A stretch of 64,000 bases of DNA from Methanospirillum hungatei JF-1. GTDB taxonomy: Archaea > Halobacteriota > Methanomicrobia > Methanomicrobiales > Methanospirillaceae. Under the pieces are notes generated by a model. The model saw nothing but the letters and a program-made list of their open reading frames with translations, did not search any database and was not told the origin of the DNA. Positions 1-17,710 of this stretch are shown here, piece by piece (positions within the stretch are counted from its first letter, which is position 1; each line of letters opens with the position of its first letter). The position numbers and the translations under genes are program-made. The stretch spans positions 842,936-906,935 of the forward strand of contig NC_007796.1 of the NCBI RefSeq assembly GCF_000013445.1, read 5' to 3'.

Positions 1-387
1 CCATACCCTTCTATTTTCGGGTCACTTGCAACTCTCAAATGTAGTGCCCCTTCCCACAAGATTTATTGTTGCCATACCCTTCTATTTTCGGGTCACTTGC
101 AACTGTACCGTCCTTCCATGCTGCAAATCATTAACAGGTTGCCATACCCTTCTATTTTCGGGTCACTTGCAACTCATAAGGTTGATCTCATGTTCTAACC
201 AGGTTACGTTGCCATACCCTTCTATTTTCGGGTCACTTGCAACACCCCAAAATTCCATCTGAACGATAAATATTTTTTCGTTGCCATACCCTTCTATTTT
301 CGGGTCACTTGCAACCGTGTAACCTAATTATCAGTCATTCAGTCTCACATTGTTGCCATACCCTTCTATTTTCGGGTCACTTGCAAC

Positions 388-395
388 TAAAAATC
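388..395. repeat. Target-site duplication, left copy (second at 1493-1500)
   Basis: TAAAAATC occurs directly before the left inverted repeat of the IS1-type element, and the same eight bases follow its right end at 1493-1500. This fixes the element's boundaries. Confidence 0.95.
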
Positions 396-1492
396 GGTAG
401 TGCCCTGTTAGCAAGCTGGTAATACTAAGTGCAAATAAAGTATTAAATTTTATGTACTAAAAATTAATATAAGTTTAGATATAATTATTTTCATGGTTGG
501 AAAACGTGGTCCTATATTGATTACGTGTCAAAATCCGGATTGTACTTATTTTCAAATTGAAGATGGAAAGAATATTACTAAAAATGGGCATAATTCTGCA
601 GGCAATCAACAGTACTATTGCCATCACTGTCGACGTTTTTTTATTGAAACTAAAAATACTCCTCTGTATGATTCTCGTTTACCACGAACTGCTGTTCTCA
701 TAATTGCGAAACACTCGACTGAAAAAACTTCAATTCGAGGAGTATCTCGAGTTACCGGACACCATCGCGACACTATATCTCGATATTATCACTTAATCGG
801 TGAACATGCTGAAAAACTCAACGATTATTTTATTCATGACATTTCCGCGGGGGATTGTGAGATGGATGAAATTTGGGAGTTTGTTCAAAAAAAAACAAGA
901 ATCTCCTAACAACTGACTCTGAAGAATTAGGTGATTGTTGGTCCTATACTTGTTTTAAAAGGGATTCTGGATTATTTTTAGCATTTGAATCTGGAAAAAG
1001 AAATATTGATACTTGTGCAGATATGTTAGTTCGATTTTTTAACCGAATGGAACTTCCAACGCCAGAAAACAAAATATCGATTTTTACTGATGGAAACGTC
1101 CAATATAGCATTTGTTTACCTGAATTATATTGTGAGCCATGCTTGGATTATGGTCAGGTGATCAAAGTAAAAGAGAAGAATAAACTTGTTTATGTCATTC
1201 GAGAGAAAATTATGGGAAATCCAGATAGTAAAGCAATCTCTACCTCAGTCATTGAGGGCTACAATAATAAAATCAGACAACGATTGAGCCGTTTTGGAAG
1301 GAAAACTGCCTCTTTTTCAAAAAAACTCAATAGATTCATTTCAGCGCTAAATATCTTTCAATTTGTGCATAATTTTATCGAAGTAAAAAGTAGTCACAAG
1401 TCTCCAGCAATGTTAGAAAGTATTACTGATCATCTTTGGAATTGGAGTGAGTTTTTAAACTACCATGTTCAGTTCTAAAGGAGGCCAGTACC
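396..1492 (+). mobile_element. IS1-family insertion sequence in a CRISPR spacer
   Basis: The element is 1,097 bp. Its ends are imperfect inverted repeats: GGTAGTGCCCTGTTAG on the left against GGTACTGGCCTCCTTTAG read from the right. It is flanked by an exact 8-bp target duplication, TAAAAATC, at 388-395 and 1493-1500. Removing the element and one duplication copy restores a 35-bp spacer between the repeats at 352 and 1528. IS1 elements are known for 8-9 bp duplications and for a frameshifted transposase, and both are seen here. The base composition is more AT-rich than the flanking cas genes. Confidence 0.95.
493..1478 (+). CDS. IS1-family transposase, two frames joined by a -1 frameshift
   Basis: The first frame (493-909, 138 aa) is InsA-like: a zinc finger (CQNPDC and CHHC pairs) followed by a helix-turn-helix segment. 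The second frame (873-1478) carries the rest of the catalytic domain, with a TDGN motif and the C-terminal SVIEGYNNKIRQRLSRFGRKT signature of IS1 transposases. The two overlap at a run of nine A followed by C near 887-896, and the second lies in the -1 frame. IS1 transposase is classically made by -1 slippage on an A-run before C, so the joined product is probably the active enzyme and the frame change is programmed. The first acidic catalytic residue is likely in the MDE motif just before the slip site. An accidental mutation cannot be excluded from sequence alone. Confidence 0.9.
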
Positions 1493-2053
1493 TAAAAATC
1501 CCATAAAAACGAAAAAGAAGGTTGTAAGTTGCCATACCCTTCTATTTTCGGGTCACTTGCAACTGCAATACTACCATATCCACCAAATACTCTAAGTTGC
1601 CATACCCTTCTATTTTCGGGTCACTTGCAACTTTGTATTATATCATCGAGTAAAAAACTTGAAACAGTTGCCATACCCTTCTATTTTCGGGTCACTTGCA
1701 ACTTAAATGGTGAACAGTATAATTGACGAAAAATGTTGCCATACCCTTCTATTTTCGGGTCACTTGCAACCCACCAACCGTTATATTCCTTATGATTCAT
1801 TTTTAGTTGCCATACCCTTCTATTTTCGGGTCACTTGCAACTAAAGAAGCCTACCGATACAGGAGGAAAGATAAAGTTGCCATACCCTTCTATTTTCGGG
1901 TCACTTGCAACTGAAAAACACTCCCCCGTCAGAACCCGCCGTTCGGTTGCCATACCCTTCTATTTTCGGGTCACTTGCAACAACGACAGCCTGTTCTCCT
2001 GTATCACTGGTGATGATGTTGCCATACCCTTCTATTTTCGGGTCACTTGCAAC

Positions 2054-2290
2054 CGCCACTTTTTTCGCTTAGATTGGCTCAAAACCTATCTCTCCATCCC
2101 CCGATTTTCAAAGATCCTACCCGGATCAATTTTGAGCCTTCAGTATTTAAAGAAGTAGGCATAATATATAAATTTTATGTTTCGATCTAAGCCCATTCCG
2201 GCCTCCGTTAGGATATTTTTTACCCGGATCGATTTTGAGCCTTGAGTTTATAAAGAACTGGGTAGTCCCTCTAACAGGCCCTGAAAAACC
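2054..2290 (-). promoter_or_regulatory. Leader of CRISPR array 1
   Basis: This 237-bp stretch between the last repeat and cas2 is very similar along its whole length to the leader of array 2 at 12528-12770. It begins CGCCACTTTTTTCGCTTAG right at the repeat in both arrays. It contains two imperfect direct repeats of about 42 bp (2116-2159 and 2221-2262). Read on the minus strand, each has an archaeal TATA-like element (TTTATAAA or TTTAAATA) followed by GGCTCAAAAT and a GATCCGGGTA core. This is consistent with array promoters firing leftwards and with adaptation signals for Cas1-Cas2. Confidence 0.85.
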
Positions 2291-2296: not shown

Positions 2297-2584
2297 TTAG
2301 ATCACCTCAAACTGCCGGTTCACCTTGGGTAACTCTTCATGAACGAGAAGAGCACGCTCCATACAGGCATTGCAGACTTCAATCACCAGTATCTTAATAC
2401 TAGGCTTTGTAAATTCCCGTTTGATTCGTGCATTCATCTGATGAAGTCTCGTTTCCGTAAGGCTTCCCATGAACACACTGTACTGCACCCGGATCAGTCC
2501 ATAATATTCCAGGACTTTTATCACCTTGTTCCGGTCCTTTGTCTTCTCCACGTCATAACAGACGATCAGATGTTTCACTGTCAT
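2297..2584 (-). CDS. cas2: CRISPR-associated protein Cas2
   Basis: This is a 95-residue protein of normal Cas2 length. The N-terminus (LIVCYDVEKTKDRNKVIKVL) shows the first ferredoxin-fold strand with the conserved YDV aspartate, followed by YGLIRVQYSVFMG. Cas2 forms the central dimer of the Cas1-Cas2 integrase that inserts new spacers at the leader end of the array. The start codon overlaps the cas1 stop by four bases (ATGA), so the two are translationally coupled, and the gene ends beside the leader of array 1. Confidence 0.97.
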   Translation of the reverse strand: MTVKHLIVCYDVEKTKDRNKVIKVLEYYGLIRVQYSVFMGSLTETRLHQMNARIKREFTKPSIKILVIEVCNACMERALLVHEELPKVNRQFEVI

Positions 2585-3576
2585 GTCCGGTACCGGTACG
2601 GAACATACTCATCCCCTTCAGTCAGTGCTTTTCCAATCCTTTCCGCCTGCCTTTTGAAAATATCCTGAAATGTTTGTTCTTCATATTTTACTTTCCCATG
2701 TATTCGAGTAAGTACAGCAGCTGCATACTTCTTCTTTGCCATCGTTCCGATCATACAACCACCCTCATCTGGATAGGTAAAATCATCAGGTGTGGCCATA
2801 TGTTTAGCAAGAAATGTCACAACGGTCCGGTCAACCACTGGTTGTCTGAACTCCTCAACCAGATCGTATACCAGTGCCTCCTGCTTTTTATATGTTTCAT
2901 GATATGCCCCATAATAAGGAGAATACCCTGACAGCACCAGTGCCTGCCTGGCCTGAATATAGAGCATCCCGTATCCGTAACTGAGTAAACTGTTCACTGG
3001 ATCAGTTGCAGGATTCTGCGACCTGCCCAAAAAACCCCATTCCTCATCAAAAGCCAATGAAAAACCCTGAAAATACGCATGAGCACCTGATCCTTCTACG
3101 CCCCGGAGACTATCAAGACTCTGACATTCGAGAGCCTTATCCTGTGCATCCTCAACAAGTCTAATCTCTCGTGAGAGATCAAATCCACGGATACGTTCAA
3201 GATTTGAAAGAAGCGTTCGTTTATTCTCCAGTGCCCCAGTGCATATCGACCGGGCAATCTCAAGTCTTCTCTCCTCCGGAGCAGAAGCCTGAGCCTCATA
3301 TTGTTCAATGAGAGCAGATCTTCCAAGAGGGAGAAAATGTCCAAAAGGATTTCCTAGTCCGTCCATGAGTGCAATGGCCCCACCATGAGAGGTTACCAGA
3401 CGAACCGCAGCAGTGGAAATTGAGTGATCGCCCGCTATTGCCAGCAGGTCAAGACCAAGTGGTGAGAGGGTCCTGGGAGGTTCAGCAGTATCACTATCCT
3501 TCCCCGTTTCAATCGTCAACACATCCCCACGCTTGCGAATTCGATAGCCGGCACCTGTAATCAGCACCGAATTCAT
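2581..3576 (-). CDS. cas1: CRISPR-associated integrase Cas1
   Basis: This is a 331-residue Cas1, the metal-dependent integrase of spacer acquisition. The N-terminal beta domain (MNSVLITGAGYRIRKRGDVL) is followed by the helical catalytic domain. Candidate active-site residues are the glutamate in RGVEGSGAHAYF, the histidine in SPYYGAYHE and the acidic pair in LVYDLVEEFRQPVVD. The gene is first in a cas1-cas2 pair and diverges from the Mre11-like gene at 3733. No Shine-Dalgarno site precedes the start, but an AT-rich TTAATTTTTT lies about 28 bp upstream, which would fit a leaderless transcript. It probably serves both arrays, as they share repeat and leader. Confidence 0.97.
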   Translation of the reverse strand: MNSVLITGAGYRIRKRGDVLTIETGKDSDTAEPPRTLSPLGLDLLAIAGDHSISTAAVRLVTSHGGAIALMDGLGNPFGHFLPLGRSALIEQYEAQASAPEERRLEIARSICTGALENKRTLLSNLERIRGFDLSREIRLVEDAQDKALECQSLDSLRGVEGSGAHAYFQGFSLAFDEEWGFLGRSQNPATDPVNSLLSYGYGMLYIQARQALVLSGYSPYYGAYHETYKKQEALVYDLVEEFRQPVVDRTVVTFLAKHMATPDDFTYPDEGGCMIGTMAKKKYAAAVLTRIHGKVKYEEQTFQDIFKRQAERIGKALTEGDEYVPYRYRT

Positions 3577-3732
3577 ACGGAGGTATTCTGCCGCTGAAAA
3601 AAATTAATCTTTGCATGAACATTCATATCAGTGAGGACTGTAGGAGCATCAGGTTCAAATCGTATTATTAATACCTGATGAGGGTCGAAATGAAGTTATA
3701 AACCTAAAGGATTGCTTATGGTGGAATAACCC

Positions 3733-5040
3733 ATGCAATTTTATAATAAGGAGATATCCTTCATTCATACAGCAGACCTTCATCTGGCAAGCCCGTTTTC
3801 AGGAATATCTGAAAAAAACCGTTCTCTAGCTGATTTTCTTCACCGTTCCATATTTCAGTCATTTGACGCCATCATTGATCTGTGTATTGCAAAGGAAGTC
3901 GATGTACTCCTCATAGCAGGAGATGTCTTTGACAGCAGGGAAAAAAACCTCCGTGCACTGCATCATTTTATCAGGGGGCTTGCCCGTTTGAAAGAACACC
4001 ATATCCAGGTTATCATCGCAACCGGCAACCATGATCCTTTGAGACCAGGACCGGGAGAATCTGCCATATGGGATGATATCCTAAATATCGCAGGAGATAA
4101 CCCGCCATTTTTCCTGGTACAGTCTGACATGTGTGAATCGATAGATATCAGTCACAACAATAAAATCGTGGCACGAGTATGCGGAAGAAGTTATGCAAGC
4201 GCTGAGACATTTGATAATCCTGTCACGAATTTCCCCCGAAAACATGATACATCCATTCCATGGATAGGGCTGGTTCATTGTACCATCGGGTCACCTGGTG
4301 ATCATATTCCCTATGCACCCCTTGGAATAACAGATCTAACCGGCCTTGGATATGATTACTGGGCACTTGGCCATATCCATGCCGGATATACGGTGCAAGA
4401 GAAAGACCCGGTTATCATCTATCCTGGAAATATTCAGGGGAGGAACTGGCGGGAGACCGGGGCAAGGGGCTGCATTTATGGGAAAATACATACTGATGGA
4501 ACCGTGCATACAGAATTTTTAGAGACTGCTCCGGTCAGGTTTGAAACAAGGGAGATCTCTATTCAGGGAATGGAACAGGAAGATGAATTAAATACTGCCA
4601 TAGAAAAGGTTATCAATACATCATCGGCAGGCAAGGGGAAAACATCCATTATTCTCTCAATAATCCTTACCGGTAGTGGAAAACTCCACCAAAGCCTAGT
4701 ACAAACAGACCTGTTAAACGAGATACTCCAGACATACCAGGAATATACGCCTCACCCGCCATTTTGTTATCTTTCCACCGTGATTGACGCGACGACAGGA
4801 ACAATGGACCGGGATGCAATCAGAGGAAAAGGGGATATCTTTGATGAGATATGCAAAAGTGCAGAATCTCTTGCTGCAGAACCGGACTGTGCGAAAACCC
4901 GGGAGATACTCGCTCCCCTCTTCCATCACCATACATTACGTCAGATTTTAGGAGAGATGTCAGAAGAGGAGATAAAACTCCTGATACAAAAGGCTGAAGA
5001 TCACCTTCTTTTAAGTCTGGGTGCAGCAGATGAAGATTGA
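3733..5040 (+). CDS. Mre11/SbcD-like (YhaO-type) DNA phosphoesterase
   Basis: This 435-residue protein has all calcineurin-type phosphoesterase motifs in order: D15-H17 (TADLHL), D64 (AGDVFD), N99-H100 (GNHD), H182 (LVHC) and H214/H216 (GHIH). Mre11/SbcD enzymes are Mn-dependent nucleases that process DNA ends with a Rad50/SbcC ATPase. The C-terminal region (about 290-435) is helical and would contact its partner. A GGTGG site lies eight bases before the chosen ATG. The downstream Rad50-like gene starts inside its last codons, so the two form a coupled pair. The pair diverges from cas1 and lies between the adaptation genes and array 2, which is unusual for a housekeeping mre11-rad50 locus. 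Confidence 0.9.
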   Translation: MQFYNKEISFIHTADLHLASPFSGISEKNRSLADFLHRSIFQSFDAIIDLCIAKEVDVLLIAGDVFDSREKNLRALHHFIRGLARLKEHHIQVIIATGNHDPLRPGPGESAIWDDILNIAGDNPPFFLVQSDMCESIDISHNNKIVARVCGRSYASAETFDNPVTNFPRKHDTSIPWIGLVHCTIGSPGDHIPYAPLGITDLTGLGYDYWALGHIHAGYTVQEKDPVIIYPGNIQGRNWRETGARGCIYGKIHTDGTVHTEFLETAPVRFETREISIQGMEQEDELNTAIEKVINTSSAGKGKTSIILSIILTGSGKLHQSLVQTDLLNEILQTYQEYTPHPPFCYLSTVIDATTGTMDRDAIRGKGDIFDEICKSAESLAAEPDCAKTREILAPLFHHHTLRQILGEMSEEEIKLLIQKAEDHLLLSLGAADED

Positions 5041-8000
5041 AGAACTTGACATCAAAGGGTTTGGCACCCTCATTAACCGGAAATTTTCATTTCCCAGAAC
5101 CGGGGTGACCATCCTTACCGGCAAAAATGAAGCCGGGAAGACTACATTTTTGGAATTTGTCAGAAGAATGCTCTTTGGATTTCCCACCGGAAGAGTTGCT
5201 TCAAAAGAGTATGAACCCATTACAGGTTTGGTGAAAGGAGGAGAATTATCTGTCATATTTCAAGACGGCACAAGATATACCATCCACCGGGTAAAAGCTT
5301 CAAATCGGAAAATTCAACAGTATCTTCTGCTGGAAGATGGAACATCAGCCTCGATAGAAGATCTGGATGCTCATATGGGAAAGATCAGAAAAGACTTTTA
5401 CAACCGAATATTTGCCCTAACGCACCTTGATCTCTGGAACGGGGGTACTCTGGTGAATGACAACTCGGTAAAAGATTTCCTTATCGGCGGACTTCTGAGC
5501 ATCAAAAAGTCGAATCCTCATGTCATCGCTGAAAATTGTCTCAAAGAAGCGAATAAACTTTTCCTCCAAAGAGGCAGCGCACCTATTATCAATGCTCTCA
5601 TTGCTGAAATAAAAAAGATAAATAGAAAAATTCGTGAGATAGAGGCAAAAACTGAAGAGTATCATGACAAGAGTAAAAAACTTGAAGAACTTCAGCAGGA
5701 GAAGAAAAGACTGGAGGAACAAGAGTTAATCGTTCAAAAAGAACTCTCCCATTACCGGATGCTCTCCGAGGCGCGGGATTCCTGGGTCACCATTGCACAA
5801 AAGAAGAATGAACTCAACGAAATAATCATACCTGATACCTTCTCAATAGATCAGGATCGACGAATTGAGGAACTGCAGGAAAAAAAGAGAGAGATTGATA
5901 AGGAACTAAAACGACAGATAGAGAAATATGATGATCTGAATTTACAAATCGAACAGATTATATCGAATGAAGCAATTCTGTCGAAAGAATCAGAGATCAT
6001 ACAAATAAATCGTCTCTATCAGCAGTACATAGCCGATATAGGAAAATTGCCCACCATCAGGTCAAAACTATCCGGGAAAAGGCGTGATCTGGACATCGCT
6101 CTCGAAGGTCTCGGCCCATTCTGGACTGAAGAGAAATTGGATACCATCATTCTTACTTCTGAGATAAAAAATGCCCTGTTTACCGCCAAAGTAACCCTGG
6201 AAAATTCTGAACGGGAACTATTACAGATAAATAATCATATAAAGAGTCTTGAAGAGGAGATTTTTCGAATCAAACAGGATATTCCGATTCCTGACAAAGA
6301 AAAACTTACCGCAGCGGATTCAATCATCGAGATAAAGAAAACCATATCTGAAATTCAATCTCTCGAACAGGAAGCGACCCTCCTCTCAAGACAGGTTGAG
6401 GAAGCACAGAGAAGGTATGACAATTCCCTCTCATACCTTGTGAATGAAGGCCTAGAAATCTCTCCAGCGTTTACAACCACCTTCCAATACGATGCCGTCA
6501 GTTCGTCGGTTCGTGCCTTTGAAGAAGAGATACAAAATCATGAAGAACAACTACGGGCATATAAGACAGCAGATACTCTGTTAGAACGGGATCTCAATCA
6601 GTGCAGTAATGATCAAAAGGAGACGGAGGCCACAATAGAATCGCTGGGAAAAATATACCCGGTCGATGCATTAAAAAGACGGCAAAAAGCCCTCTATGAA
6701 CTTAAAGAACTTCTCAATCGAAGAGATAAACGAAGAGAATCCGGAATTTCTCCCGGTTTTGCTAGTAATTTTACAATATTCGCCCTCTTGTTCATAGGTA
6801 GTTTTCTCTGTATTACTGCAGGATTCATCTCCGGCCAGTTTATTTTTATTGGTGTTGGCATTGGTATCCTTCTCATTTCAGGTGTGCTATATCTGAACGA
6901 CAGGAATACCCAAAATATACGGGCAGAAGAAGATGACAAGCTTGAGCAGGAGATTGAAACCTATTCCAAAAGACTCAATATTAAAATCCTAAAGTCGGAT
7001 GAGATAGACCGGATAATTAGCCAGACTGAACTACTATCCGATAGATCACGACAGGCAGAAGCATTACAGATTACTCTGTCTCAGATTCTGAAAAGAAAAG
7101 CCAAGTCAGAAGAAAATATTCAATATCTGGAAGGAAAGCTGCAAGAAGCGAAACGGGAACTCGATATCACTTTACAGAAGTGGCATGCTTTTCTTGTAGA
7201 AATGCTTTCCCCTGGTTTGGCAGAGAGAAATCCATCTCCCCGTAATGTATACTCACTTCTTTCCATGATACAGGTCGTATCCAGAGAATCATCTGAAATC
7301 AACCGGATTAATCAGGAGATAGCCAGGATACAAAATAAAAAACAAGTTGCATTGGCCAAATGTCAGGAGATGCTGACTCCACTCATCATAATTTTTTCAA
7401 TTGAAAAACTTCCTGCCGACATTACCGAGCTTTCAGCATCTATCGATCTCATAACCGAGCAGGTACAGACAGAACTCAATAAACAAGAGAGAGCCAACAC
7501 TCTTCTTGAGGAAATTAAAAGACGAAAACAGAAAATTGATCAGGCACACCAATATCACACCTCAATCTCTGACCGTATTGTACAAGAACGGGAAAACTTC
7601 AATAAAATATTGACTCGGTCAGGACTTCCTGCAGAATGCAACCCAGACCGTCTAGAAAGTCTAATTCAGGAAGTTCTGGCCGCCCGGACACAGTATACAG
7701 GGTTGAAAGAGACGCAGCACGAGCTGAATGAATTAGAAAAACAGATTCGGTCATACGAGGAGCAGGTGTATTCTCTTCGTCAACTTATCGAAGAATCAAC
7801 CAAAGATAGTACGATTAATTTCCTCACTGAACGGCTAGTATCACTACTTTCAAATGAGAAAGATATTGTACGCAAAAGAGATTCCATGATCGAGAGGATA
7901 AAAGGGTGTAAAGAGAGGATCGATAATCAGAAGAAAGAACGGGAATTGGTTCAAATGGAGGAGGAATCTCTCCTATCCGAATCAGGTGTTCCAGATTATG

Positions 8001-8878
8001 ACTCATATTGTGAATACCGTTCCATGTTGCAGAGAAAAAAGAATGTTATTCAGGAGATAGACCAGGAAATAGCAATAATAAACAGGATTTGTGGAGATCC
8101 TCAAGGATATAATCAAGTCTCCCATGAGCTGTCATTGCAGTCAAAAGATGAGGTTATGGCTGCAATTGAAACAGGTTCATCCAGAGTGAGTAAACTAAGG
8201 GAGCAGATAAGTATTATAGACAGAGAGATAGGAAGCATCGGAACCGAGATAGAGATACTCAAACAGTCAGAAGAGCATAACAGGCTCCTACTTGAGAGAA
8301 ATATTATTCATACGTCAATTCATGAGTACGCACAGAAATGGGCGGTCCAGACCTTGGCTGCGGAAATGCTCAGGCAGTCTCTTGAGAAGTTTGAGAGAGA
8401 GAAGCAACCTGCCGTCGTTTCAAAGGCGACAGAATACTTCCGTATGATGACAAACGGTGCATACAGCCGGATTATTCTTCCGATATCCGGAGACGAGTTT
8501 GAGGTTATCATGGATAACAGTATCATGAAAGGTCCTGATATTCTGAGTCAGGGGACTGCTGAACAACTGTATATTTCCCTTCGTCTTGCCTACGCAACTG
8601 AATACTGCCTGCAAAATGAACCCATGCCTGTGGTGCTTGATGATATTCTTATCAACTGTGATGAGGATCGACATGCACGAGCAATTCGTGCAATCGGTTC
8701 GGTTGCAGAACATACCCAGGTTATCTATTGTACCTGCCATAATAAAACCGTGGAACAATTCTCCGATATTCTCGATGATGTCCATGTTATCGATCTTGAT
8801 TCACCAGATTCAGTATACCAGAGGAGAGAAGATCCTGATGGCATGACGATAGAGGGAGAGGGATATTTCGTGCTTTGA
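5030..8878 (+). CDS. Rad50/SbcC-like ATPase with membrane segments (YhaN-type)
   Basis: This is an SMC-like ATPase of about 1,282 residues. Walker A is GKNEAGKTT (31-39). The ABC signature (LSQGTAEQLYISLRLA) and Walker B (PVVLDDILINCDED, near 1200) lie at the C-terminus, separated by long coiled coils. At about 580-622 there are two adjacent hydrophobic stretches (FALLFIGSFLCITAGFI and FIGVGIGILLISGVLYL) in place of the CxxC zinc hook of true Rad50. This is the layout of Bacillus YhaN. The complex may therefore be tethered to the membrane through the coiled-coil tip. ATG 5030 is preferred over GTG 5021 because the protein then starts MKIEELDIKGFG, as is usual in this family. It overlaps the Mre11-like stop. 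Confidence 0.9.
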   Translation: MKIEELDIKGFGTLINRKFSFPRTGVTILTGKNEAGKTTFLEFVRRMLFGFPTGRVASKEYEPITGLVKGGELSVIFQDGTRYTIHRVKASNRKIQQYLLLEDGTSASIEDLDAHMGKIRKDFYNRIFALTHLDLWNGGTLVNDNSVKDFLIGGLLSIKKSNPHVIAENCLKEANKLFLQRGSAPIINALIAEIKKINRKIREIEAKTEEYHDKSKKLEELQQEKKRLEEQELIVQKELSHYRMLSEARDSWVTIAQKKNELNEIIIPDTFSIDQDRRIEELQEKKREIDKELKRQIEKYDDLNLQIEQIISNEAILSKESEIIQINRLYQQYIADIGKLPTIRSKLSGKRRDLDIALEGLGPFWTEEKLDTIILTSEIKNALFTAKVTLENSERELLQINNHIKSLEEEIFRIKQDIPIPDKEKLTAADSIIEIKKTISEIQSLEQEATLLSRQVEEAQRRYDNSLSYLVNEGLEISPAFTTTFQYDAVSSSVRAFEEEIQNHEEQLRAYKTADTLLERDLNQCSNDQKETEATIESLGKIYPVDALKRRQKALYELKELLNRRDKRRESGISPGFASNFTIFALLFIGSFLCITAGFISGQFIFIGVGIGILLISGVLYLNDRNTQNIRAEEDDKLEQEIETYSKRLNIKILKSDEIDRIISQTELLSDRSRQAEALQITLSQILKRKAKSEENIQYLEGKLQEAKRELDITLQKWHAFLVEMLSPGLAERNPSPRNVYSLLSMIQVVSRESSEINRINQEIARIQNKKQVALAKCQEMLTPLIIIFSIEKLPADITELSASIDLITEQVQTELNKQERANTLLEEIKRRKQKIDQAHQYHTSISDRIVQERENFNKILTRSGLPAECNPDRLESLIQEVLAARTQYTGLKETQHELNELEKQIRSYEEQVYSLRQLIEESTKDSTINFLTERLVSLLSNEKDIVRKRDSMIERIKGCKERIDNQKKERELVQMEEESLLSESGVPDYDSYCEYRSMLQRKKNVIQEIDQEIAIINRICGDPQGYNQVSHELSLQSKDEVMAAIETGSSRVSKLREQISIIDREIGSIGTEIEILKQSEEHNRLLLERNIIHTSIHEYAQKWAVQTLAAEMLRQSLEKFEREKQPAVVSKATEYFRMMTNGAYSRIILPISGDEFEVIMDNSIMKGPDILSQGTAEQLYISLRLAYATEYCLQNEPMPVVLDDILINCDEDRHARAIRAIGSVAEHTQVIYCTCHNKTVEQFSDILDDVHVIDLDSPDSVYQRREDPDGMTIEGEGYFVL

Positions 8879-8934
8879 GTATACATATCAATCCGGGAAT
8901 ATCGGTAAAAAAGCTGAGGTATGATCTGATGATC

Positions 8935-9786
8935 TTATCCTTGATCGCAGATGGCTTTGAAGGCACAATCAATACAATGGTTTGAACTCGGATTGCGGGG
9001 GAATTTTTCGTATTCATAGGTGCTGTTCATTATTCTGAACTCATCGGTTATGAGTGCCCAGATATCATCAAGATCGGTTTCAGTAAAGAGATAAGGATGG
9101 ATAGAGCCGGTTGAAAGAAAATTCAGTTCACTCCGGATATCACGTGGGTCCTTCTGGAAATATTCACTGGCCCAGAGGACATACACTCCCATTTGTAACC
9201 TGTTGATCGGTGAATCTTCCATCTCTGCACCTGTCTTCCAGTCGGTGATGATCAAAATTCCTCCAGGATCCTGGCTGATGTAATCTACCTTCAGTAATAC
9301 TTTTGTGGAATCGACCAGAACTTTGTCGAAGGTTTCATGCCTGATATAGATGTTACCTTTGATATGTGGCCAGAGATCCGAAAAAAACGTATGTATTTGA
9401 GTGACACCGGTCTCCCTGATCTGGTCAAAGAAGGTCTCATCTGGTGCTCCGTTGTAGAATTCCGCAATGGTTGTTCGTGAGGTATTCTCGTACATCTGAA
9501 CCTTTTTCAGATACTGAGATATCATAGCTTCCTGATCTGGTTCTCTTCCTAGATTGTGTTTGTTCATCTGGTCTTCAAGAATCTCATGGATAATCCTGCC
9601 CTGGAGAGCATATTTAGGAGTGAGAGATTTGAGCATACTTATTTTTCCAACATCCAGATTACCAGGATCGAGAAGGTACGGGGCAATATTCTGATACCAG
9701 AATTTTCTTTTGCAGCGATGCCAGAGCTCATATTTCGTGTGTGACCAGGAGTTGTTATTGTAAAACCAGTCTTTTAATTTTGTCAT
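8935..9786 (-). CDS. Cas4/AddB-like PD-(D/E)XK nuclease with four iron-sulfur cysteines
   Basis: This 283-residue protein has RecB-type nuclease motifs: H67 (GRIIHEIL), D168 (LLKVDYI), D182-x-K184 (TDWKTG) and Q198 (RLQMGVYVLW). Four cysteines, C25 near the N-terminus and C271, C274 and C280 at the C-terminus, match the 4Fe-4S arrangement of Cas4 and AddB. It is longer than typical Cas4 (about 180-200 residues), so a stand-alone PDDEXK_1 exonuclease is an alternative. A GGTG site precedes the ATG by about eight bases. It converges on the Rad50-like gene and its 5' end faces the old end of array 2. Its position between the two arrays suggests a role in spacer precursor trimming or DNA degradation. 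Confidence 0.8.
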   Translation of the reverse strand: MTKLKDWFYNNNSWSHTKYELWHRCKRKFWYQNIAPYLLDPGNLDVGKISMLKSLTPKYALQGRIIHEILEDQMNKHNLGREPDQEAMISQYLKKVQMYENTSRTTIAEFYNGAPDETFFDQIRETGVTQIHTFFSDLWPHIKGNIYIRHETFDKVLVDSTKVLLKVDYISQDPGGILIITDWKTGAEMEDSPINRLQMGVYVLWASEYFQKDPRDIRSELNFLSTGSIHPYLFTETDLDDIWALITDEFRIMNSTYEYEKFPRNPSSNHCIDCAFKAICDQG

Positions 9787-9890: not shown

Positions 9891-9926
9891 GGTGGAATAT
9901 ACTTCTAATTTCGGGTCTCTTGCAAC
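9891..9926 (-). repeat. Degenerate terminal CRISPR repeat
   Basis: These 36 bases align without gaps to the repeat but differ at about eight positions, mostly in the outer half that faces away from the array. Decay of the leader-distal repeat is usual in old arrays and supports the stated polarity. A 34-bp spacer separates it from the first intact repeat. Confidence 0.9.
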
Positions 9927-10277
9927 ATCGTAATGACTGCGCGAACGATCTTATGAGTTAGTTGCCATACCCTTCTATTTTCGGGTCACTTGCAACTGGT
10001 ACTTGTTCAACCCAATAACGGGTATGGTGGGTTGCCATACCCTTCTATTTTCGGGACACTTGCAACCTACCCAATATTAACCTCATACATCTGTATACCA
10101 GTTGCCATACCCTTCTATTTTCGGGTCACTTGCAACTATGTAGATCATTATGGTGATATATCGAGTGTAAGTTGCCATACCCTTCTATTTTAGGGTCACT
10201 TGCAACAAGAAAACCCCACATTAAACATTTACATAGATGTAGTTGCCATACCCTTCTATTTTCGGGTCACTTGCAAC

Positions 10278-10297
10278 ATTTTAGGGTGACTTGTAAC
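10278..10297 (-). repeat. Mutated half-repeat inside a spacer slot
   Basis: The 35-bp slot between the repeats at 10242 and 10313 opens with 20 bases matching the inner half of the repeat except for three substitutions. One of these is the TAGGG variant that also marks the neighbouring repeat at 10171. The remaining 15 bases (10298-10312) are unrelated. Confidence 0.85.
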
Positions 10298-10977
10298 TTA
10301 CAAAGGTCAGTGGTTGCCATACCCTTCTATTTTCGGGTCACTTGCAACAGGGTAGGTATGGCACATTATGGACCGATTATAGTTGCCATACCCTTCTATT
10401 TTCGGGTCACTTGCAACACGTAAGGATGAGTGATTATGGTACGGATACAGAGTTGCCATACCCTTCTATTTTCGGGTCACTTGCAACATTAGATAGAGCC
10501 ACATTACATGAGGTCTATTATGTTGCCATACCCTTCTATTTTCGGGTCACTTGCAACAGGGAATGTTCGAGAAATGAAATAGAAACAACGTCGTTGCCAT
10601 ACCCTTCTATTTTCGGGTCACTTGCAACTAACATGCTTGACAAAATAGTGGAATGATTTCCTGGTTGCCATACCCTTCTATTTTCGGGTCACTTGCAACT
10701 GAACTCATGGAGCTTATCCGATTTCTGGATAAGTTGCCATACCCTTCTATTTTCGGGTCACTTGCAACCAGGTGCTGCACAGGGCAACTGGTGGTATCAG
10801 GAGTTGCCATACCCTTCTATTTTCGGGTCACTTGCAACGTTAATGATACGTTCTGCGATTTGTGCGGTAAAGTTGCCATACCCTTCTATTTTCGGGTCAC
10901 TTGCAACTGTGTACTCGCGTTTCCATTTGCCGTCTGTCCCGGTTGCCATACCCTTCTATTTTCGGGTCACTTGCAAC

Positions 10978-11255
10978 ATAATGGATCATGTTATGTTCCC
11001 GCCTTTCATGGTTGCCATACCCTTCTATTTTCGGGTCACTTGCAACCTCAAAATAACCCATAATGAGATCTTTGATTCTGGTTGCCATACCCTTCTATTT
11101 TCGGGTCACTTGCAACATAATGGATCATGTTATGTTCCCGCCTTTCATGGTTGCCATACCCTTCTATTTTCGGGTCACTTGCAACCTCAAAATAACCCAT
11201 AATGAGATCTTTGATTCTGGTTGCCATACCCTTCTATTTTCGGGTCACTTGCAAC
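10978..11255. repeat. 139-bp tandem duplication of two spacer-repeat units
   Basis: Positions 10978-11116 and 11117-11255 are the same: a 33-bp spacer, a repeat, a 34-bp spacer and a repeat. It is the only exact spacer duplication I see in either array, and is best explained by unequal recombination between repeats. Confidence 0.95.
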
Positions 11256-12527
11256 GAACTGGCAGAATAATGATCCAGCCCCAGTATGTGTTGCCATACC
11301 CTTCTATTTTCGGGTCACTTGCAACATCTCACTCTCTTATAAGTGAGATGAATGAGGATGAGTTGCCATACCCTTCTATTTTCGGGTCACTTGCAACAAG
11401 AGTCTAATGAGAAGTATAAAAAAATTGTAAAGTTGCCATACCCTTCTATTTTCGGGTCACTTGCAACCAGGTGCACAACCTGATGGAAGAACAGAGGGAA
11501 AGTTGCCATACCCTTCTATTTTCGGGTCACTTGCAACAGGTTGCTGCAGGTGTTATAGATCTCCCTGATGTAGTTGCCATACCCTTCTATTTTCGGGTCA
11601 CTTGCAACCTGCCTCCGTTGGTGCTGCAAGGCCCTGCATGAGGTTGTTGCCATACCCTTCTATTTTCGGGTCACTTGCAACTACATTCTGCTTTTAGGTT
11701 GGAAAGGGGCTTCCAAGTTGCCATACCCTTCTATTTTCGGGTCACTTGCAACTATATCACACTAAAGTAAAAAACAGATGAAATCAGGTTGCCATACCCT
11801 TCTATTTTCGGGTCACTTGCAACAGCCACACGCGGTCCTATCCTGTAACCTGATAACGTTGCCATACCCTTCTATTTTCGGGTCACTTGCAACCGTAAGA
11901 CTGCGTAAACATGACGTAACTATATCCGTGTTGCCATACCCTTCTATTTTCGGGTCACTTGCAACTTACACTTGACGAGATTGAAGCCGCTAAGGACTTG
12001 TTGCCATACCCTTCTATTTTCGGGTCACTTGCAACGAAATACCACAAAGGAGCGTGGTTAGATGATGCCCCGTTGCCATACCCTTCTATTTTCGGGTCAC
12101 TTGCAACTTTAAAGCGCGCCGAAATTGAGGCGCAGTATAAGAGTTGCCATACCCTTCTATTTTCGGGTCACTTGCAACTATTAAAGATGAAATAAAAATT
12201 CTATTGTATTAAGTTGCCATACCCTTCTATTTTCGGGTCACTTGCAACATTCTAGAGGGCTTCTGATTATCCTCAAAGCATGTTGCCATACCCTTCTATT
12301 TTCGGGTCACTTGCAACTGCGTATGACAAGTTAACCTTATTAAACGCTAAGGTTGCCATACCCTTCTATTTTCGGGTCACTTGCAACAAATCAGATACTA
12401 GAATAACTATATGGTAAATATCGTTGCCATACCCTTCTATTTTCGGGTCACTTGCAACCCCGATTGAGCTCGTACAAGCGGGCGCGGGCGTGTTGCCATA
12501 CCCTTCTATTTTCGGGTCACTTGCAAC

Positions 12528-12770
12528 CGCCACTTTTTTCGCTTAGATTGGCTCAAAACCCATCTTTCCATCCCCCGATTTTCAGGGAACCTACCTGGAT
12601 CGATTTTGAGCTTTCAGTATTTAAAGAAGTAGGCATAATATATAAATGTAATGGTTCAATTTACGCCCAAATCGGCCTTCGTTCAGAATATTTTTACCCG
12701 GATCGATCTCGAACCTTTAGTTTATAAAGAACTGGGCAACCCCTCTAAAAGGGCCCAATTTTTTCTCCTT
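12528..12770 (-). promoter_or_regulatory. Leader of CRISPR array 2
   Basis: This is nearly the same sequence as the leader of array 1, including the segment touching the repeat and the two promoter-like direct repeats (12590-12633 and 12695-12736) with minus-strand TATA boxes TTTAAATA and TTTATAAA. It sits between the array and the 3' end of the type III operon. Similarity fades after about 12750, where T-rich tracts begin. Confidence 0.85.
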
Positions 12771-12816: not shown

Positions 12817-14106
12817 TTATTCTGCAAGGAACTTTTTTGCTGAAAACCGGTTCACCGATTCTACCCGAATTTTAACCCTGTTTTTCGGACTCCCCTGATT
12901 ATATTTCGAAATCCCGGCACTCGTATTCCCGGTGATCTGAATTTCCTTATCAAAAAACTGAGTAATATGCTCCATTTCATTTTGAGTCATATTATCAAAG
13001 ACCATATACATCATGAGCGCTGATCGCTTCGGTATATACTCATTCCCAATTCCTTTTTTACCAGCATACCAGGCATCTGATACGATGAGCCGGCCCCGTT
13101 GGTTTAATCCTCCAAAAATGGAATCGATGATTTTTTTATCGGTTTCTCTCTGTTCAAGCTTGTGCCGTAAGAACCCTTTAATCGTCGAACCGGGAATAAC
13201 CGGCCCAAGCCCGTTTGTGACCGTAGGCTCATCAAGCCCTTTCATCGAAAAATCAGTTATACAGGTAACAATCAGCGTAGCGACAACATGTCCGTCATCA
13301 AACCGGTTAACCGGTTCTGAGAATGCTTTCCAGTACCGATCAAACCCTCTGTCGCTATCAGGTGAGCTGTTTATCCCGGCAAGATATCGTTTCGCAGCAG
13401 ATAAACAATCTTTTCCTGAAACCTTATCCCTGGATATAACTCCATCCTGCAGAGATAACTTCGTAAGAGTGACACCTTTCATTGAACAAAACCCGTGACC
13501 CCTCGTAGAACCGCCGCCCAGATGTGCCCGAAAATAATTAAACTCTCGAAGAACGAGCATCATGAGCCCTGCCTCTTCGTCAGTCCCGTTATCAAGATCA
13601 ATATGAAACCGAAATTCAGTACCTGCAGATACCGACTCTTCCGGTCGCATCAGTCCTTTTCCACCAGGTCTGGGACTACCAAAGTGCGGTTGTTCCCGAA
13701 GATATCCCTGCCAGTCCTCCTTGGTTCGGCACTCATCGGTCAGGTGTGAATCCCTAATTCTCACCTTTGCACCCCCGTTCATCGAACCAAACATACGGCA
13801 GGAAATACAGGTGTCATTTCCGCAAAGAACCATTCCTTCTTTTTTATTCCCGACACTGACACAGCACTTTGAGTCATCAAATGTCCTTACCAGACGCTCA
13901 AGTGTACTGCGAAGGATCCCTTTCAGGCTGCTTCCTGGAATATATGGCTCAAATACGCCTGAACCTGCATCAAAACACTCAATTACAGGAGCAGGAGAGA
14001 GCGAATACATCGCCGCATTCTGACCCCCGCCAATCCGCATCGGTGTCTTCAGTTCGATAGTCCCTTCAATCTCGTACCGGTTTGAAAACCGGTCTAACGA
14101 ATCCAT
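12817..14106 (-). CDS. Fused double Cas7 (Csm3-like) RAMP of the type III effector
   Basis: This 429-residue protein holds two Cas7 units. The first (about 12-215) has the IGGG loop, the YIPGSSLKGILR motif, a zinc-type cysteine cluster (C95, C100, C103) and a glycine-rich GGGSTRGHGF loop, but lacks an aspartate where Csm3 has its catalytic one. The second (about 275-420) has VIPGSTIKGFLR and keeps an aspartate in GLDEPTV (D292). Cas7 subunits form the crRNA-binding backbone and, when the aspartate is present, cut target RNA. One cleaving and one apparently inactive unit are inferred. A GGGGAGG site precedes the ATG. The gene is last in the operon. Fused Cas7 units are a feature of some III-D variants and of III-E. 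Confidence 0.85.
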   Translation of the reverse strand: MDSLDRFSNRYEIEGTIELKTPMRIGGGQNAAMYSLSPAPVIECFDAGSGVFEPYIPGSSLKGILRSTLERLVRTFDDSKCCVSVGNKKEGMVLCGNDTCISCRMFGSMNGGAKVRIRDSHLTDECRTKEDWQGYLREQPHFGSPRPGGKGLMRPEESVSAGTEFRFHIDLDNGTDEEAGLMMLVLREFNYFRAHLGGGSTRGHGFCSMKGVTLTKLSLQDGVISRDKVSGKDCLSAAKRYLAGINSSPDSDRGFDRYWKAFSEPVNRFDDGHVVATLIVTCITDFSMKGLDEPTVTNGLGPVIPGSTIKGFLRHKLEQRETDKKIIDSIFGGLNQRGRLIVSDAWYAGKKGIGNEYIPKRSALMMYMVFDNMTQNEMEHITQFFDKEIQITGNTSAGISKYNQGSPKNRVKIRVESVNRFSAKKFLAE

Positions 14107-14117
14107 ACGATCCTCCC

Positions 14118-14891
14118 CTACTCCTTCTTCCCGGCGACACAGGTTCTCCAGGCAGCTAATGCCTGACTGACAAACGCATCATACTGGGGAGTTCCAAATC
14201 CATAGGTTGTACCGGAATAATTCCCATTCAGATAATCATTCGCTGAGATCACCGAAATCTCTTTGATCCTGACCTCAACCTCCCCATATCCCCGGGAGAC
14301 CCCATGACCCATCGTCCCTGCACAGGCATTGAAAAACTCTACCAGGGAGAGAAGCCCACCAAGACGGGCATAATCTTGTCCATACAATGAACAATTCTCT
14401 AGCATTACATAACCGGAAAAAACCGTGCCCTTTGGCACCGCCTCAAGATCGTACTTACTGCCTGGTTTAGCCTTTCTTGATTTTCTATCAATTGCAACCC
14501 CGTCTCTGATAACGGTAAACTTTTCCTTTGCAGTTGCATCCCGGATCCGGGCAGGTGATGAATTCCCCCCACTCCCGAAGATCTGACAGACAAGACAGGG
14601 ATCCACTGCTTTATCTCTTTTTTCTGGGTGTTCCTTCAGCCATCGCGATGAATAACACACATCCGGAATCGTGCAGACCTCAATGGAGCATCCTCGCAAA
14701 AGCCGTTCAAGTTCAGTCCGAAGCACCCCCTTGATACTACTCCCGGGAATTATTGGAAAATCCTCACTATTCCTAAGCACTGGAAGATCAACATCAGCCG
14801 GCCCAGATGATCCGTGACCTCCGATATGCAGATCAGACTTCGTCACAATATCCCAGGAGATCACCGCCCTGTTCTCAAACGATGAAAACAT
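14118..14891 (-). CDS. Cas7 (Csm3-like) backbone subunit, probable RNA-cleaving
   Basis: This 257-residue single-unit RAMP has LHIGGHGSSG, the PIIPGSSIKGVLR motif, a CLVCQIFGSGG cysteine motif and a GHGVSRGYGEV glycine-rich loop. The segment VDLPVLR keeps D35 at the position of the Csm3 catalytic aspartate, so target-RNA cleavage is expected. Its ATG overlaps the previous stop (TGATG) and GGAGGT lies four bases upstream. It is closest to the Csm3-type Cas7 of subtypes III-A and III-D. Confidence 0.87.
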   Translation of the reverse strand: MFSSFENRAVISWDIVTKSDLHIGGHGSSGPADVDLPVLRNSEDFPIIPGSSIKGVLRTELERLLRGCSIEVCTIPDVCYSSRWLKEHPEKRDKAVDPCLVCQIFGSGGNSSPARIRDATAKEKFTVIRDGVAIDRKSRKAKPGSKYDLEAVPKGTVFSGYVMLENCSLYGQDYARLGGLLSLVEFFNACAGTMGHGVSRGYGEVEVRIKEISVISANDYLNGNYSGTTYGFGTPQYDAFVSQALAAWRTCVAGKKE

Positions 14892-15478
14892 CAGTACCTC
14901 CCCCTCTGGGAATATCCGCCTCTATCCTGATTCCTCTGCCTGTTCTGATCACCACTCTGATGATATCCCCCTTCATTCTTCACCCATTTCTGAATCTGTG
15001 AAAACACCTGATCAACCTCATGATCAGCACCAACAACTTTGAGTTCTGCTTCAAGCATCTTCCTGATAGTATCCTGCGACTTTAACTCACCCATGGCAGT
15101 GAGAATCGCACAAACTGCATCGGCATTCCAGTTTGCATACCCGATCAGATACTTGAGCTGCTCCCTCACCCGCTCAGGCTCACCACCGGATCTGTTCAAT
15201 TCATCCACCTGTTCCATTAGTTTGTTCATGAACGGGAGCATCTGTTCCGGTTTCGTTCCTGCATCTTTCCGGGGCAGAAAATACGCGGCACTCTTGACAA
15301 AATGGGTGATAGACGCTGCTGCATCATCCATCTGACGAAGAGCTTCAGGGAGAGTTTTGAATTTACTCCGTGAATCAATAACAAACTTATCATCCTTCTT
15401 TATTGGCTTGGGCATAAGCACCGTAAGCTCATATGACATGAGCACTATCTTCTTTAGTTCATCAGCATTCATCTGCAT
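14891..15478 (-). CDS. Small helical subunit with RG-rich tail, Cas11 candidate
   Basis: This 195-residue protein is predicted mostly helical up to about residue 165 (DDAAASITHFVKSAAYFL and YLIGYANWNADAVCAIL) and ends in a low-complexity tail rich in Gln, Asn, Arg and Gly (QNRQRNQDRGGYSQRGRY). It sits inside the effector operon next to Cas7 genes, where type III operons carry the small subunit Csm2/Cmr5 (Cas11) that lines the target strand. I infer that role from position and fold type only. The tail could bind RNA. Confidence 0.6.
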   Translation of the reverse strand: MQMNADELKKIVLMSYELTVLMPKPIKKDDKFVIDSRSKFKTLPEALRQMDDAAASITHFVKSAAYFLPRKDAGTKPEQMLPFMNKLMEQVDELNRSGGEPERVREQLKYLIGYANWNADAVCAILTAMGELKSQDTIRKMLEAELKVVGADHEVDQVFSQIQKWVKNEGGYHQSGDQNRQRNQDRGGYSQRGRY

Positions 15479-15481
15479 CTC

Positions 15482-15961
15482 TCATCTCCTCCCCGAAACT
15501 TTGCAACTTTGTTGAAACTTCGGCTTTGGTATCTTTTCAAGAACTGCATCCGGGTTCCTGACCTGCTCGGCACGAAGAATCTGGCGTATCTTTGATTCAT
15601 CCCCACGAAGTTGTTCAATAATTCTGATATTCCAGAGCAGGTACTGGACAAATCTCATCCTATCTCGGGCAGAAAGATCTTTCATTGCCGAAATAACTTC
15701 AGATCCGACCTTCTTATGGATCCCCTTGCGTATTTTCATTTCATCTATCACTTTTGGATCATTTCCACCCCTTCCATCAGAGGGCTGAGGCGAGTACCGA
15801 TCCTGCTGCTCCTTGATTATATGCTCAAACCTTGATGATCTGGCCTGTTCGAAAAAGAACCTCACCTGACCGGTTGAATAACACTCAATCTCTTTTCCTT
15901 TCCGGATCATTGCTGAAGCGGCAATCTCCCAGGCCTTCTGATTCATATCAATCATATCCAT
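15482..15961 (-). CDS. Small effector-operon protein, second Cas11 candidate
   Basis: This 159-residue protein is helical and basic, with no motif I recognise. Segments such as ISAMKDLSARDRMRFVQYLLWNIRIIEQL suggest a helical bundle in the C-terminal half. Its start overlaps the stop of the Csx10-like gene by one base, and it ends four bases before the next small gene, so it is part of the complex or its assembly. It could be a Csm2-like subunit, or one of the poorly characterised extra proteins of III-D operons. Confidence 0.6.
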   Translation of the reverse strand: MDMIDMNQKAWEIAASAMIRKGKEIECYSTGQVRFFFEQARSSRFEHIIKEQQDRYSPQPSDGRGGNDPKVIDEMKIRKGIHKKVGSEVISAMKDLSARDRMRFVQYLLWNIRIIEQLRGDESKIRQILRAEQVRNPDAVLEKIPKPKFQQSCKVSGRR

Positions 15962-17043
15962 CAGATCACCCCTGAGACAAACATCTCACCATACCCTGAA
16001 CTTTGCATATCACCGATTCCAAACACCTCCAAAGCCGCAAGAGACGACGGAGAACCCGTGACCATGATGCAACTCCCCGGACCGGTAGCAGGAACAATCT
16101 CATCCACCATATTTCCATTCTTCAGCGACCAGCCCCTGACAACCGACCGGGTAATATACGGACTGGGATCAGAACCTGGAGCGATATCTCCTTTATAACC
16201 TCTTGATTCCAATCGTTTATTAATCGCTTCGAAAAACGACCTGTCAAGCCCAATCGTCGAGTTGGCCCCTGATCGCAGGATACAGGGAGCATTCAGAATG
16301 AGAAGATATTCATCCCCTTTTGAAAACTCTGACGACCGGGATGCAATATGCTCATCATCTGAAACCTGCGAATCCACGGAAATATCAACCAGCCCATACC
16401 CCCGTGATCGAAAACCTCCAAGCCCACAGGCATACGAAGCATCATTCAAAATATGAACCACATCATCAGCAACTGTATCCTCTGCAAGCATCACAAACCC
16501 AAAAGGAACCCCCGGTTCGATTCCTTCCACATGGTACGGTGAAAGTTGCCAGCCACTTCCCATACTTGTATGACCATCCCTGGTAATCGGACACTTTGTC
16601 TCCAGTCTTTTCGGAACTGGATCAGGCTGTACCAGTTTTCTCTCGGAAAAAGATTTAATCCCAACGAGACCGGTATGTTTCTTCCCTTCCTGCAGACACA
16701 GTCTTCCATCTACCATTTGAGTGCATTCATTCTCATCATTCTCGATAAGACTGCCACATTTTTTGCACCAACGACTCTTAAGAGGGGCATAAACAGAGCG
16801 TTTTTTATCTGAAAGAGGATATCCATTCCTGAAAAAGAGGTGCATCTTTTCAGGTTCATGATCCTCTGCCAGACCACATGCATCAAATAGATCCCGGTAA
16901 TTCTGATACAGGTACCAGCCGATCATACCCCGGATGGTCCGCCCCGGAACATATGAAAGCGTCTGAGAAAAGGTCCCTCTTGCCCGACCATTTCCAAAAT
17001 GGAGTGGTGAGACTGATGTTATCGTTCCCTTCATCACCTGCAT
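15961..17043 (-). CDS. csx10: Csx10-like RAMP (Cas5-type) of subtype III-D
   Basis: This 360-residue protein starts with a RAMP strand and the YVPGRTIRGMIGWYL motif typical of Csx10, where PG is followed by IRG. A cysteine cluster (WCKKCGSLIEND and ECT...LC, about 92-118) comes next, and then a GLGGFRSRGYGLVDI glycine-rich loop. The C-terminal part repeats a RAMP-like layout (ITRSVVRGWSLKNG, SSGYGEMFVSG). Csx10 is the signature protein of III-D and takes the Cas5/Csm4 place, holding the crRNA 5' handle beside Cas10. A full GGAGGTG site lies seven bases before the chosen ATG. The family call is from motifs and context. Confidence 0.75.
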   Translation of the reverse strand: MQVMKGTITSVSPLHFGNGRARGTFSQTLSYVPGRTIRGMIGWYLYQNYRDLFDACGLAEDHEPEKMHLFFRNGYPLSDKKRSVYAPLKSRWCKKCGSLIENDENECTQMVDGRLCLQEGKKHTGLVGIKSFSERKLVQPDPVPKRLETKCPITRDGHTSMGSGWQLSPYHVEGIEPGVPFGFVMLAEDTVADDVVHILNDASYACGLGGFRSRGYGLVDISVDSQVSDDEHIASRSSEFSKGDEYLLILNAPCILRSGANSTIGLDRSFFEAINKRLESRGYKGDIAPGSDPSPYITRSVVRGWSLKNGNMVDEIVPATGPGSCIMVTGSPSSLAALEVFGIGDMQSSGYGEMFVSGVI

Positions 17044-17047
17044 CTAT

Positions 17048-17710
17048 TTACACCTCCGAAATTACAGTCCCATCAGACTTTTTAATTTCACCAATTTTCA
17101 GAGCGCCAAACCCCCGTGATCGGTTCTTCCCAAGCCCATAACAGGCCATAGTATGCAGACTAGCCAGGAAAACCCGTTTTTCTTCATCAGTCAGACCTGT
17201 CCTTATAATAATATCTCCCGTAAAAATCGTACCTGAAGGAATGGCCTCTTCAGAATAGAGAGCATGTTCCTCTTTAACCTGGAATTCACGGTTGATCATC
17301 ACATGACTCCTTCTGAGAATATTCACTTCCTCTTTCCCTTTGGACGGATAAAAATCCAAAAAACGTAACTTTCCTTCACGAAAACCGCCTCCGCCGTCGA
17401 TATTGGGAACACCAAAGAGTGAGCAGACAGGACATCCATATCCTCCTGCCTTCACCTCATCACATACCATAATTTCATGATCAGTAGAATAAGGATTGCC
17501 GGTAATAAAACACGATATCCCTGCAGAACCCTTCATAATCCGTTCTGCTTCACATCGCATCACCCCTTTCAGGTGGGTTGCAGGAATATAGGGAATGCTG
17601 TTCCCTTTACGGTCCTGATTTCGGGCAATCTGAATAAAAGAACCCATATTATTCCCGGTTGTATGAAATGGAGAGATAAAACAGAGATCAATCGTCCATA
17701 TTTCCATCAT
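17048..17710 (-). CDS. Cas7-family RAMP, probably non-cleaving
   Basis: This 220-residue RAMP has YIPATHLKGVMRCEAERIM, the GCPVCSLFGVPN cysteine motif and a LGKNRSRGFGALKIG glycine-rich loop. The stretch where Csm3 carries its aspartate reads GSFIQIARN, so the catalytic residue seems absent. This suggests a structural backbone subunit. The ATG overlaps the cas10 stop (ATGATG) behind GAGGTG. The start could be either of the two adjacent ATG codons. Confidence 0.82.
   Translation of the reverse strand: MMEIWTIDLCFISPFHTTGNNMGSFIQIARNQDRKGNSIPYIPATHLKGVMRCEAERIMKGSAGISCFITGNPYSTDHEIMVCDEVKAGGYGCPVCSLFGVPNIDGGGGFREGKLRFLDFYPSKGKEEVNILRRSHVMINREFQVKEEHALYSEEAIPSGTIFTGDIIIRTGLTDEEKRVFLASLHTMACYGLGKNRSRGFGALKIGEIKKSDGTVISEV

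What the first reader, a model, noticed from the sequence alone, without database searches (positions are those of the whole stretch)
3733..9786. Membrane-tethered SMC/Mre11 pair plus Fe-S nuclease embedded between two CRISPR arrays
The YhaO/YhaN-like pair and the Cas4/AddB-like nuclease lie between cas1-cas2 with array 1 and array 2 with its effector operon. The ATPase has two hydrophobic segments at the coiled-coil tip in place of a zinc hook, so its DNA-processing complex would be held at the membrane. This is a natural place to meet incoming phage or plasmid DNA, and the set could form a spacer-precursor generator or a separate defence unit linked to CRISPR.
Basis: partly seen in the sequence, partly recalled or inferred. 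Interest (0 to 1): 0.7.

Follow-up and report, generated by a model that had tools for sequence, protein, structure and literature searches.

The report
Membrane DNA-end nuclease beside CRISPR cas1
In one branch of the methane-producing archaeon Methanospirillum, a membrane-anchored DNA-end-cutting protein pair sits next to the genes that record new CRISPR memories, so it may help cut up invading DNA for storage; the third gene in the finding looks like an unrelated neighbour.

Summary
The genes are real and correctly placed. The window is from a 3,544,738-bp single-contig genome (size fits Methanospirillum hungatei JF-1). A YhaO-type Mre11-like nuclease (3733-5040) and a YhaN-type Rad50-like ATPase (start 5021 or 5030, to 8878) lie divergent from cas1-cas2. 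A stand-alone Cas4/RecB-like Fe-S nuclease (8935-9786) follows, inside one large type III CRISPR locus with two arrays. The membrane hairpin at the coiled-coil tip is real but is a trait of the YhaN family, not of this locus.

The trio splits. The pair stays beside the same cas1-cas2 in all three genus members that carry it; nine other genomes of the genus lack pair and cas1 alike. About 110 other YhaO-YhaN loci show no cas1 or cas2. The nuclease was not found in the two relatives (drafts), and its full-length homologues in about 20 genomes sit in varied places without CRISPR arrays.

Most likely the pair is a membrane-tethered DNA-end-processing complex that makes or trims prespacers for a Cas1-Cas2 lacking its own Cas4. 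That function is inferred. Passive carriage or an independent defence unit remain open. I found no published description in the papers searched.

The parts
1..2053 (-). CRISPR array 1 (extends left of the window to genome 841173); interrupted by an IS1-like transposase at 493-1478
2054..2281 (-). Leader of array 1, homologous to the leader of array 2 and to that of G202
2297..2584 (-). cas2
   Evidence: Pfam CRISPR_Cas2 7e-19
2581..3576 (-). cas1
   Evidence: Pfam Cas_Cas1 6.6e-68; 83% and 73% identical in G202 and G205
3577..3732 (.). Divergent intergenic region between cas1 and the Mre11-like gene, with blocks conserved in G202
3733..5040 (+). YhaO-type Mre11-like nuclease
5021..8878 (+). 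YhaN-type Rad50-like ATPase with tip membrane hairpin (start 5021 GTG, or more likely 5030 ATG)
8935..9786 (-). Stand-alone PD-(D/E)XK Fe-S nuclease (Cas4/RecB/ACE1-like); neighbour, not shown to belong to the unit
9891..12526 (-). CRISPR array 2, same repeat, no spacers shared with array 1
12527..12755 (-). Leader of array 2
12817..20974 (-). Type III effector operon: Csm3-like RAMPs, Csm2-like small subunit, a 159-aa ORF, Csx10-like RAMP, Cas10 with HD and GGDD motifs, Cas6

Best explanation
The YhaO-YhaN pair is a genus-level accessory of one type III CRISPR-Cas locus in a sub-branch of Methanospirillum. By family it is a Mre11-Rad50-type complex: an ATP-driven coiled-coil ATPase plus a metallophosphoesterase nuclease. 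Its coiled-coil arms end in a two-helix membrane hairpin instead of a zinc hook, so it should sit at the cell membrane with its DNA-binding heads in the cytoplasm. The most likely job is to find free DNA ends of entering or replicating invaders and cut or trim them into fragments that the divergently encoded Cas1-Cas2, which has no clear Cas4 of its own in this locus, inserts as spacers. The Fe-S nuclease next door is a stand-alone Cas4/RecB-family gene that could act in the same step, but nothing shows that it does. Shown here: gene identities, conserved active-site motifs, hydrophobic tip hairpin, linkage to cas1(-cas2) in three genomes of the genus, no detected canonical Mre11 in the genus, dispensability of the pair in the genus. 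Inferred: complex formation, membrane location, DNA-end cutting, role in spacer acquisition.
For: The cas1|Mre11 divergent junction is kept in JF-1, G202 and G205 at 73-83% Cas1 identity, while the far side of cas2 differs in G205. Pair and this cas1 are present or absent together: 3 of 3 with, 9 of 9 without in the genus. The pair is dispensable in the genus: genomes about 99% complete lack both it and a canonical Mre11, so it behaves as an accessory. Mre11 and ATPase motifs are intact. Tip hairpin. Precedent: SbcCD and RecBCD are redundantly needed for primed adaptation in E. coli (PMC6896009); AddAB promotes type III-A adaptation (PMC9048733).
Against: The linkage is one clade and possibly one event; core gene order is also well kept between these genomes. 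About 110 other YhaO-YhaN pairs have no cas1/cas2 nearby, so the family does not need CRISPR. The tip hairpin is family-wide. G202 and G205 contigs end inside YhaN or Mre11. JF-1 also carries AddAB-sized PD-(D/E)XK proteins that could supply prespacers. No experiment.
Confidence: 0.4

Rival explanations
1. The pair is an independent defence or DNA-maintenance unit that cuts DNA ends at the membrane on its own and merely shares a defence island with the CRISPR locus.
For: YhaO-YhaN is a stable two-gene unit almost everywhere without CRISPR. SMC/Rad50-like complexes can act alone in immunity (PMC10586767).
Against: In this genus it is found only beside this cas1 and is absent where this cas1 is absent.
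Confidence: 0.3
2. Passive neighbour: the pair landed next to cas1 once and was inherited with the locus, with no functional link.
For: Single clade; high background synteny; family not otherwise CRISPR-linked.
Against: Kept across 65-74% protein identity while genes on the other side of cas2 changed; both genes stay intact in a genus where they are dispensable.
Confidence: 0.22
3. A three-gene machine: YhaO, YhaN and the Fe-S nuclease together form the spacer-precursor generator.
For: The nuclease lies 57 bp from YhaN (convergent), has a complete active site and Cas4-type cysteines, and this locus has no other Cas4-like gene.
Against: No homologue found in G202 or G205 (drafts). Full-length homologues (35-43%) sit without CRISPR arrays and without YhaN in about 20 genomes. 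Cas4 models are at or below cut-off. Best fold match is Argonaute-associated ACE1, not adaptation Cas4.
Confidence: 0.08

Closest known systems
YhaO-YhaN pair (DNA repair exonuclease + AAA_27 ATPase; named from Bacillus)
   Same: Gene order, overlapping ORFs, Metallophos + AAA_27 domains, hydrophobic hairpin at the coil tip, no zinc hook.
   Different: Divergent lineage (closest outside the genus about 39% in Mre11), longer ATPase (1285 vs about 1050 aa), and fixed beside cas1-cas2.
Canonical Mre11-Rad50 / SbcCD
   Same: Phosphoesterase nuclease plus coiled-coil ABC ATPase; nearest solved structures are Mre11 and Rad50.
   Different: No CxxC zinc hook, membrane hairpin instead; far below NCBIfam equivalog cut-offs.
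Lamassu (LmuB with LmuA, LmuC)
   Same: SMC/Rad50-like ATPase; LmuB models score it.
   Different: No LmuA or LmuC, about twice the usual LmuB length (about 650 aa, PMC10586767), Mre11 partner; LmuB models also score ordinary YhaN.
Cas4 / Argonaute-associated ACE1 nuclease (for 8935-9786)
   Same: PD-(D/E)XK core and four conserved Cys; best fold match ACE1 9iab, E 7e-8.
   Different: 283 aa, below the NCBIfam cas4 cut-off (22.5 of 65 bits); homologues not next to cas1 or arrays.

Membership tests
YhaO-YhaN pair | Adjacent Metallophos and AAA_27 genes with intact motifs | tested here: met
YhaO-YhaN pair | Hydrophobic hairpin in the middle of the coiled coil, no CxxC hook | tested here: met
Canonical Mre11-Rad50/SbcCD | CxxC zinc hook | tested here: not met
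Canonical Mre11-Rad50/SbcCD | NCBIfam equivalog cut-offs | tested here: not met
   (51 of 600 bits; 27.5 of 700 bits)
Lamassu | LmuA effector and LmuC beside LmuB | tested here: not met
   No such genes in the neighbourhood; LmuB score is not specific
Cas4 (adaptation) | cas4 model score and linkage to cas1 | tested here: not met
   Pfam Cas_Cas4 exactly at cut-off, 22.7 bits
Cas4 (adaptation) | PD-(D/E)XK site and four Fe-S cysteines | tested here: met
Type III CRISPR-Cas locus | cas10, RAMP proteins, cas6, arrays, cas1-cas2 | tested here: met
CRISPR adaptation factor (working like one) | Conserved linkage to cas1-cas2 | tested here: inconclusive
   Three of three in one genus, none of about 110 elsewhere
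CRISPR adaptation factor (working like one) | Loss changes spacer acquisition | not testable with these tools
   Needs an experiment

The most novel reading that the evidence does not exclude
A CRISPR adaptation module with a dedicated, membrane-tethered Mre11-Rad50-type prespacer generator encoded as the divergent partner of cas1-cas2, in place of Cas4 and of borrowed housekeeping nucleases, in a type III system.
Probability: 0.33. Interest if true: 0.75.

Novelty: new variant of a known kind. Interest (0 to 1): 0.45.

Why it matters
How type III systems without Cas4 obtain and trim spacer precursors is poorly understood; host repair nucleases are usually borrowed. A locus that carries its own DNA-end-processing complex next to cas1-cas2, anchored at the membrane where invading DNA enters, would make prespacer generation directly testable. 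It would also suggest a role for the membrane hairpin of the widespread but little-studied YhaN family.

Tried and rejected
- Lamassu membership rejected: the LmuB model also scores ordinary YhaN proteins.
- 'Membrane hairpin as a CRISPR adaptation' rejected: it is present across the family.
- Nuclease as a true cas4 of this locus rejected as membership.
- Back-up for a lost canonical Mre11-Rad50 considered: no genome of the genus shows a canonical Mre11, but nine of its genomes lack this pair as well, so it is not a general replacement.
Plasmid hits to Mre11 were weak (26-28% among those listed).
- Literature searches gave no report of YhaO/YhaN linked to cas1; most subscription papers are not held.
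- A synteny query of 43 kb was too long and was repeated with 14 kb.
- An RNase_T-like exonuclease recurs near homologues of the nuclease in 9 of 20 loci but at no fixed position.

Full report
What is there. The window is positions 842936-906935 of a 3,544,738-bp single-contig genome; that size is, from memory, that of Methanospirillum hungatei JF-1. From left to right the locus holds array 1 (interrupted by an IS1-like transposase), its leader, cas2, cas1, a divergent Mre11-like gene, a YhaN-like ATPase gene, a convergent PD-(D/E)XK nuclease gene, array 2, its leader, and a type III effector operon with cas10 and cas6. All 76 repeats found are one 36-mer on one strand. The two leaders are 83% identical to each other and about 69% identical to the leader in relative G202, so array 2 looks like a duplication, or a converted copy, made after those lineages split. 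The arrays share no spacers. Left of array 1, outside the window, lie two TM1812-family CARF proteins and a Csx14-like CARF protein, so the whole looks like one large type III locus.

The pair. The Mre11-like protein has the full set of phosphoesterase motifs, and its nearest solved relatives by sequence are archaeal Mre11 nucleases. The ATPase is AAA_27/Rad50-like. It has no CxxC zinc hook but two hydrophobic segments near the middle of the coiled coil; AlphaFold2 makes that region a helical hairpin at the turn (mean pLDDT 80, pTM 0.48). This is not special to the locus: nearly all of the full-length YhaN proteins checked in the class and across GTDB show hydrophobic segments at the matching place, and none has a CxxC motif.

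Linkage of the pair to CRISPR. Among 232 genomes of the class, the JF-1-type Cas1 occurs in three: JF-1, G202 (83%) and G205 (73%); the next best is 41%. In G202 the contig reads array, leader, cas2, cas1, Mre11, YhaN to the contig end. In G205 it reads Mre11 (contig end), cas1, cas2, then a TM1812-family CARF gene and a Csx14-like gene. So the cas1|Mre11 junction is kept in all three while the other side of cas2 differs. Nine other genomes of the genus have neither this Cas1 nor YhaN. Outside the genus, 18 class loci, 80 loci from the GTDB-wide scan and 20 phylum loci (about 110 distinct places after overlaps) show no cas1 or cas2 by the searches used. No array lies next to a pair, although one locus (L206) has a three-repeat array about 6.5 kb away. 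The positive cases are one clade, and core gene order is also well kept there, so linkage alone cannot tell function from inheritance.

Is the pair just housekeeping? No canonical Mre11 was found in any of the 12 genomes of the genus at the scores seen elsewhere in the family, and several genus members at about 99% completeness (G200, G201, G207, G208) lack the CRISPR-linked pair as well. The pair is therefore dispensable in the genus and behaves as an accessory of this locus. JF-1 has AddAB-sized PD-(D/E)XK proteins elsewhere in the genome. In a Mre11 tree the JF-1/G202 lineage has a long stem and falls near or within the archaeal YhaO group.

The nuclease. It has an intact PD-(D/E)XK site and four conserved cysteines. 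Its full-length homologues (35-43%) occur in about 20 genomes of the family with no CRISPR array, no YhaN and no fixed neighbour. No homologue was found in G202 or G205 (incomplete drafts). Cas4 models are at or below their cut-offs, and the best fold match is the Argonaute-associated Cas4-family protein ACE1 (both ends of the model are low-confidence). I treat it as a neighbour.

How the locus was built (inference). In G134, a more distant genome, the same kind of effector operon leads directly into Card1, cas1, cas2 and one array. In the Methanospirillum branch the place upstream of cas1 is taken by the divergent pair; in JF-1 the nuclease and a second array lie between the pair and the effector. 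The two arrays are same-strand direct repeats around the block cas2-cas1-Mre11-YhaN-nuclease, so recombination between them could delete it. G199 (core DNA 92-93% identical) has the effector but no detected JF-1-type cas1, Mre11 or YhaN, which would fit such a loss or an assembly gap.

Function. Best reading: a membrane-held DNA-end-processing complex that supplies or trims prespacers for Cas1-Cas2. Support is the position, the conserved enzyme motifs, the lack of a clear Cas4 in this locus, and precedent: SbcCD and RecBCD are redundantly required for primed adaptation in E. coli (PMC6896009), and AddAB promotes type III-A adaptation (PMC9048733). I give this about 0.4. An independent defence unit sharing the island gets about 0.3, passive inheritance about 0.2, and the three-gene machine under 0.1.

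Novelty. Each part belongs to a known family. The pairing of YhaO-YhaN with cas1-cas2 was not found in the papers searched and is best called a new variant of a type III locus.

Noticed in passing
window 1-2053, transposase 493-1478: Array 1 is interrupted by an IS1-like transposase gene, in two overlapping ORFs.
   Followed up: partly
L117 (genome 830000-845000): 1973-2746, 4381-6579, 6650-8332, 8344-9621, 9623-10876: Left of array 1: a Csx14-like CARF protein, a Tubulin_2 protein, an HD-CE protein and two TM1812-family CARF proteins. The same CARF families abut cas2 in G205.
   Followed up: partly
window 2018-12560 and G199: Same-strand arrays flank the cas2-cas1-Mre11-YhaN-nuclease block. 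Recombination between them could excise it; G199 keeps the effector but no detected block.
   Followed up: partly
L112 7970-9400 (G111): A reverse transcriptase gene lies directly upstream of a relative of this cas1.
   Followed up: no
Genus of the window (12 genomes): No canonical Mre11 detected in any genome of the genus, although about 40 of the other 96 genomes of the family have a strong match.
   Followed up: partly
L081-L100 (9 of 20 loci): An RNase_T-like exonuclease of about 193 aa recurs near homologues of the Fe-S nuclease, at varied positions.
   Followed up: partly
window 10941-11218: Two spacer-repeat units of array 2 are duplicated in tandem, 100% identical.
   Followed up: no
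window 15482-15961: A 159-aa ORF in the effector operon matches none of the libraries tried (Pfam, NCBIfam, PADLOC) but is kept in G134 and G205: perhaps an undescribed subunit of this type III complex.
   Followed up: no
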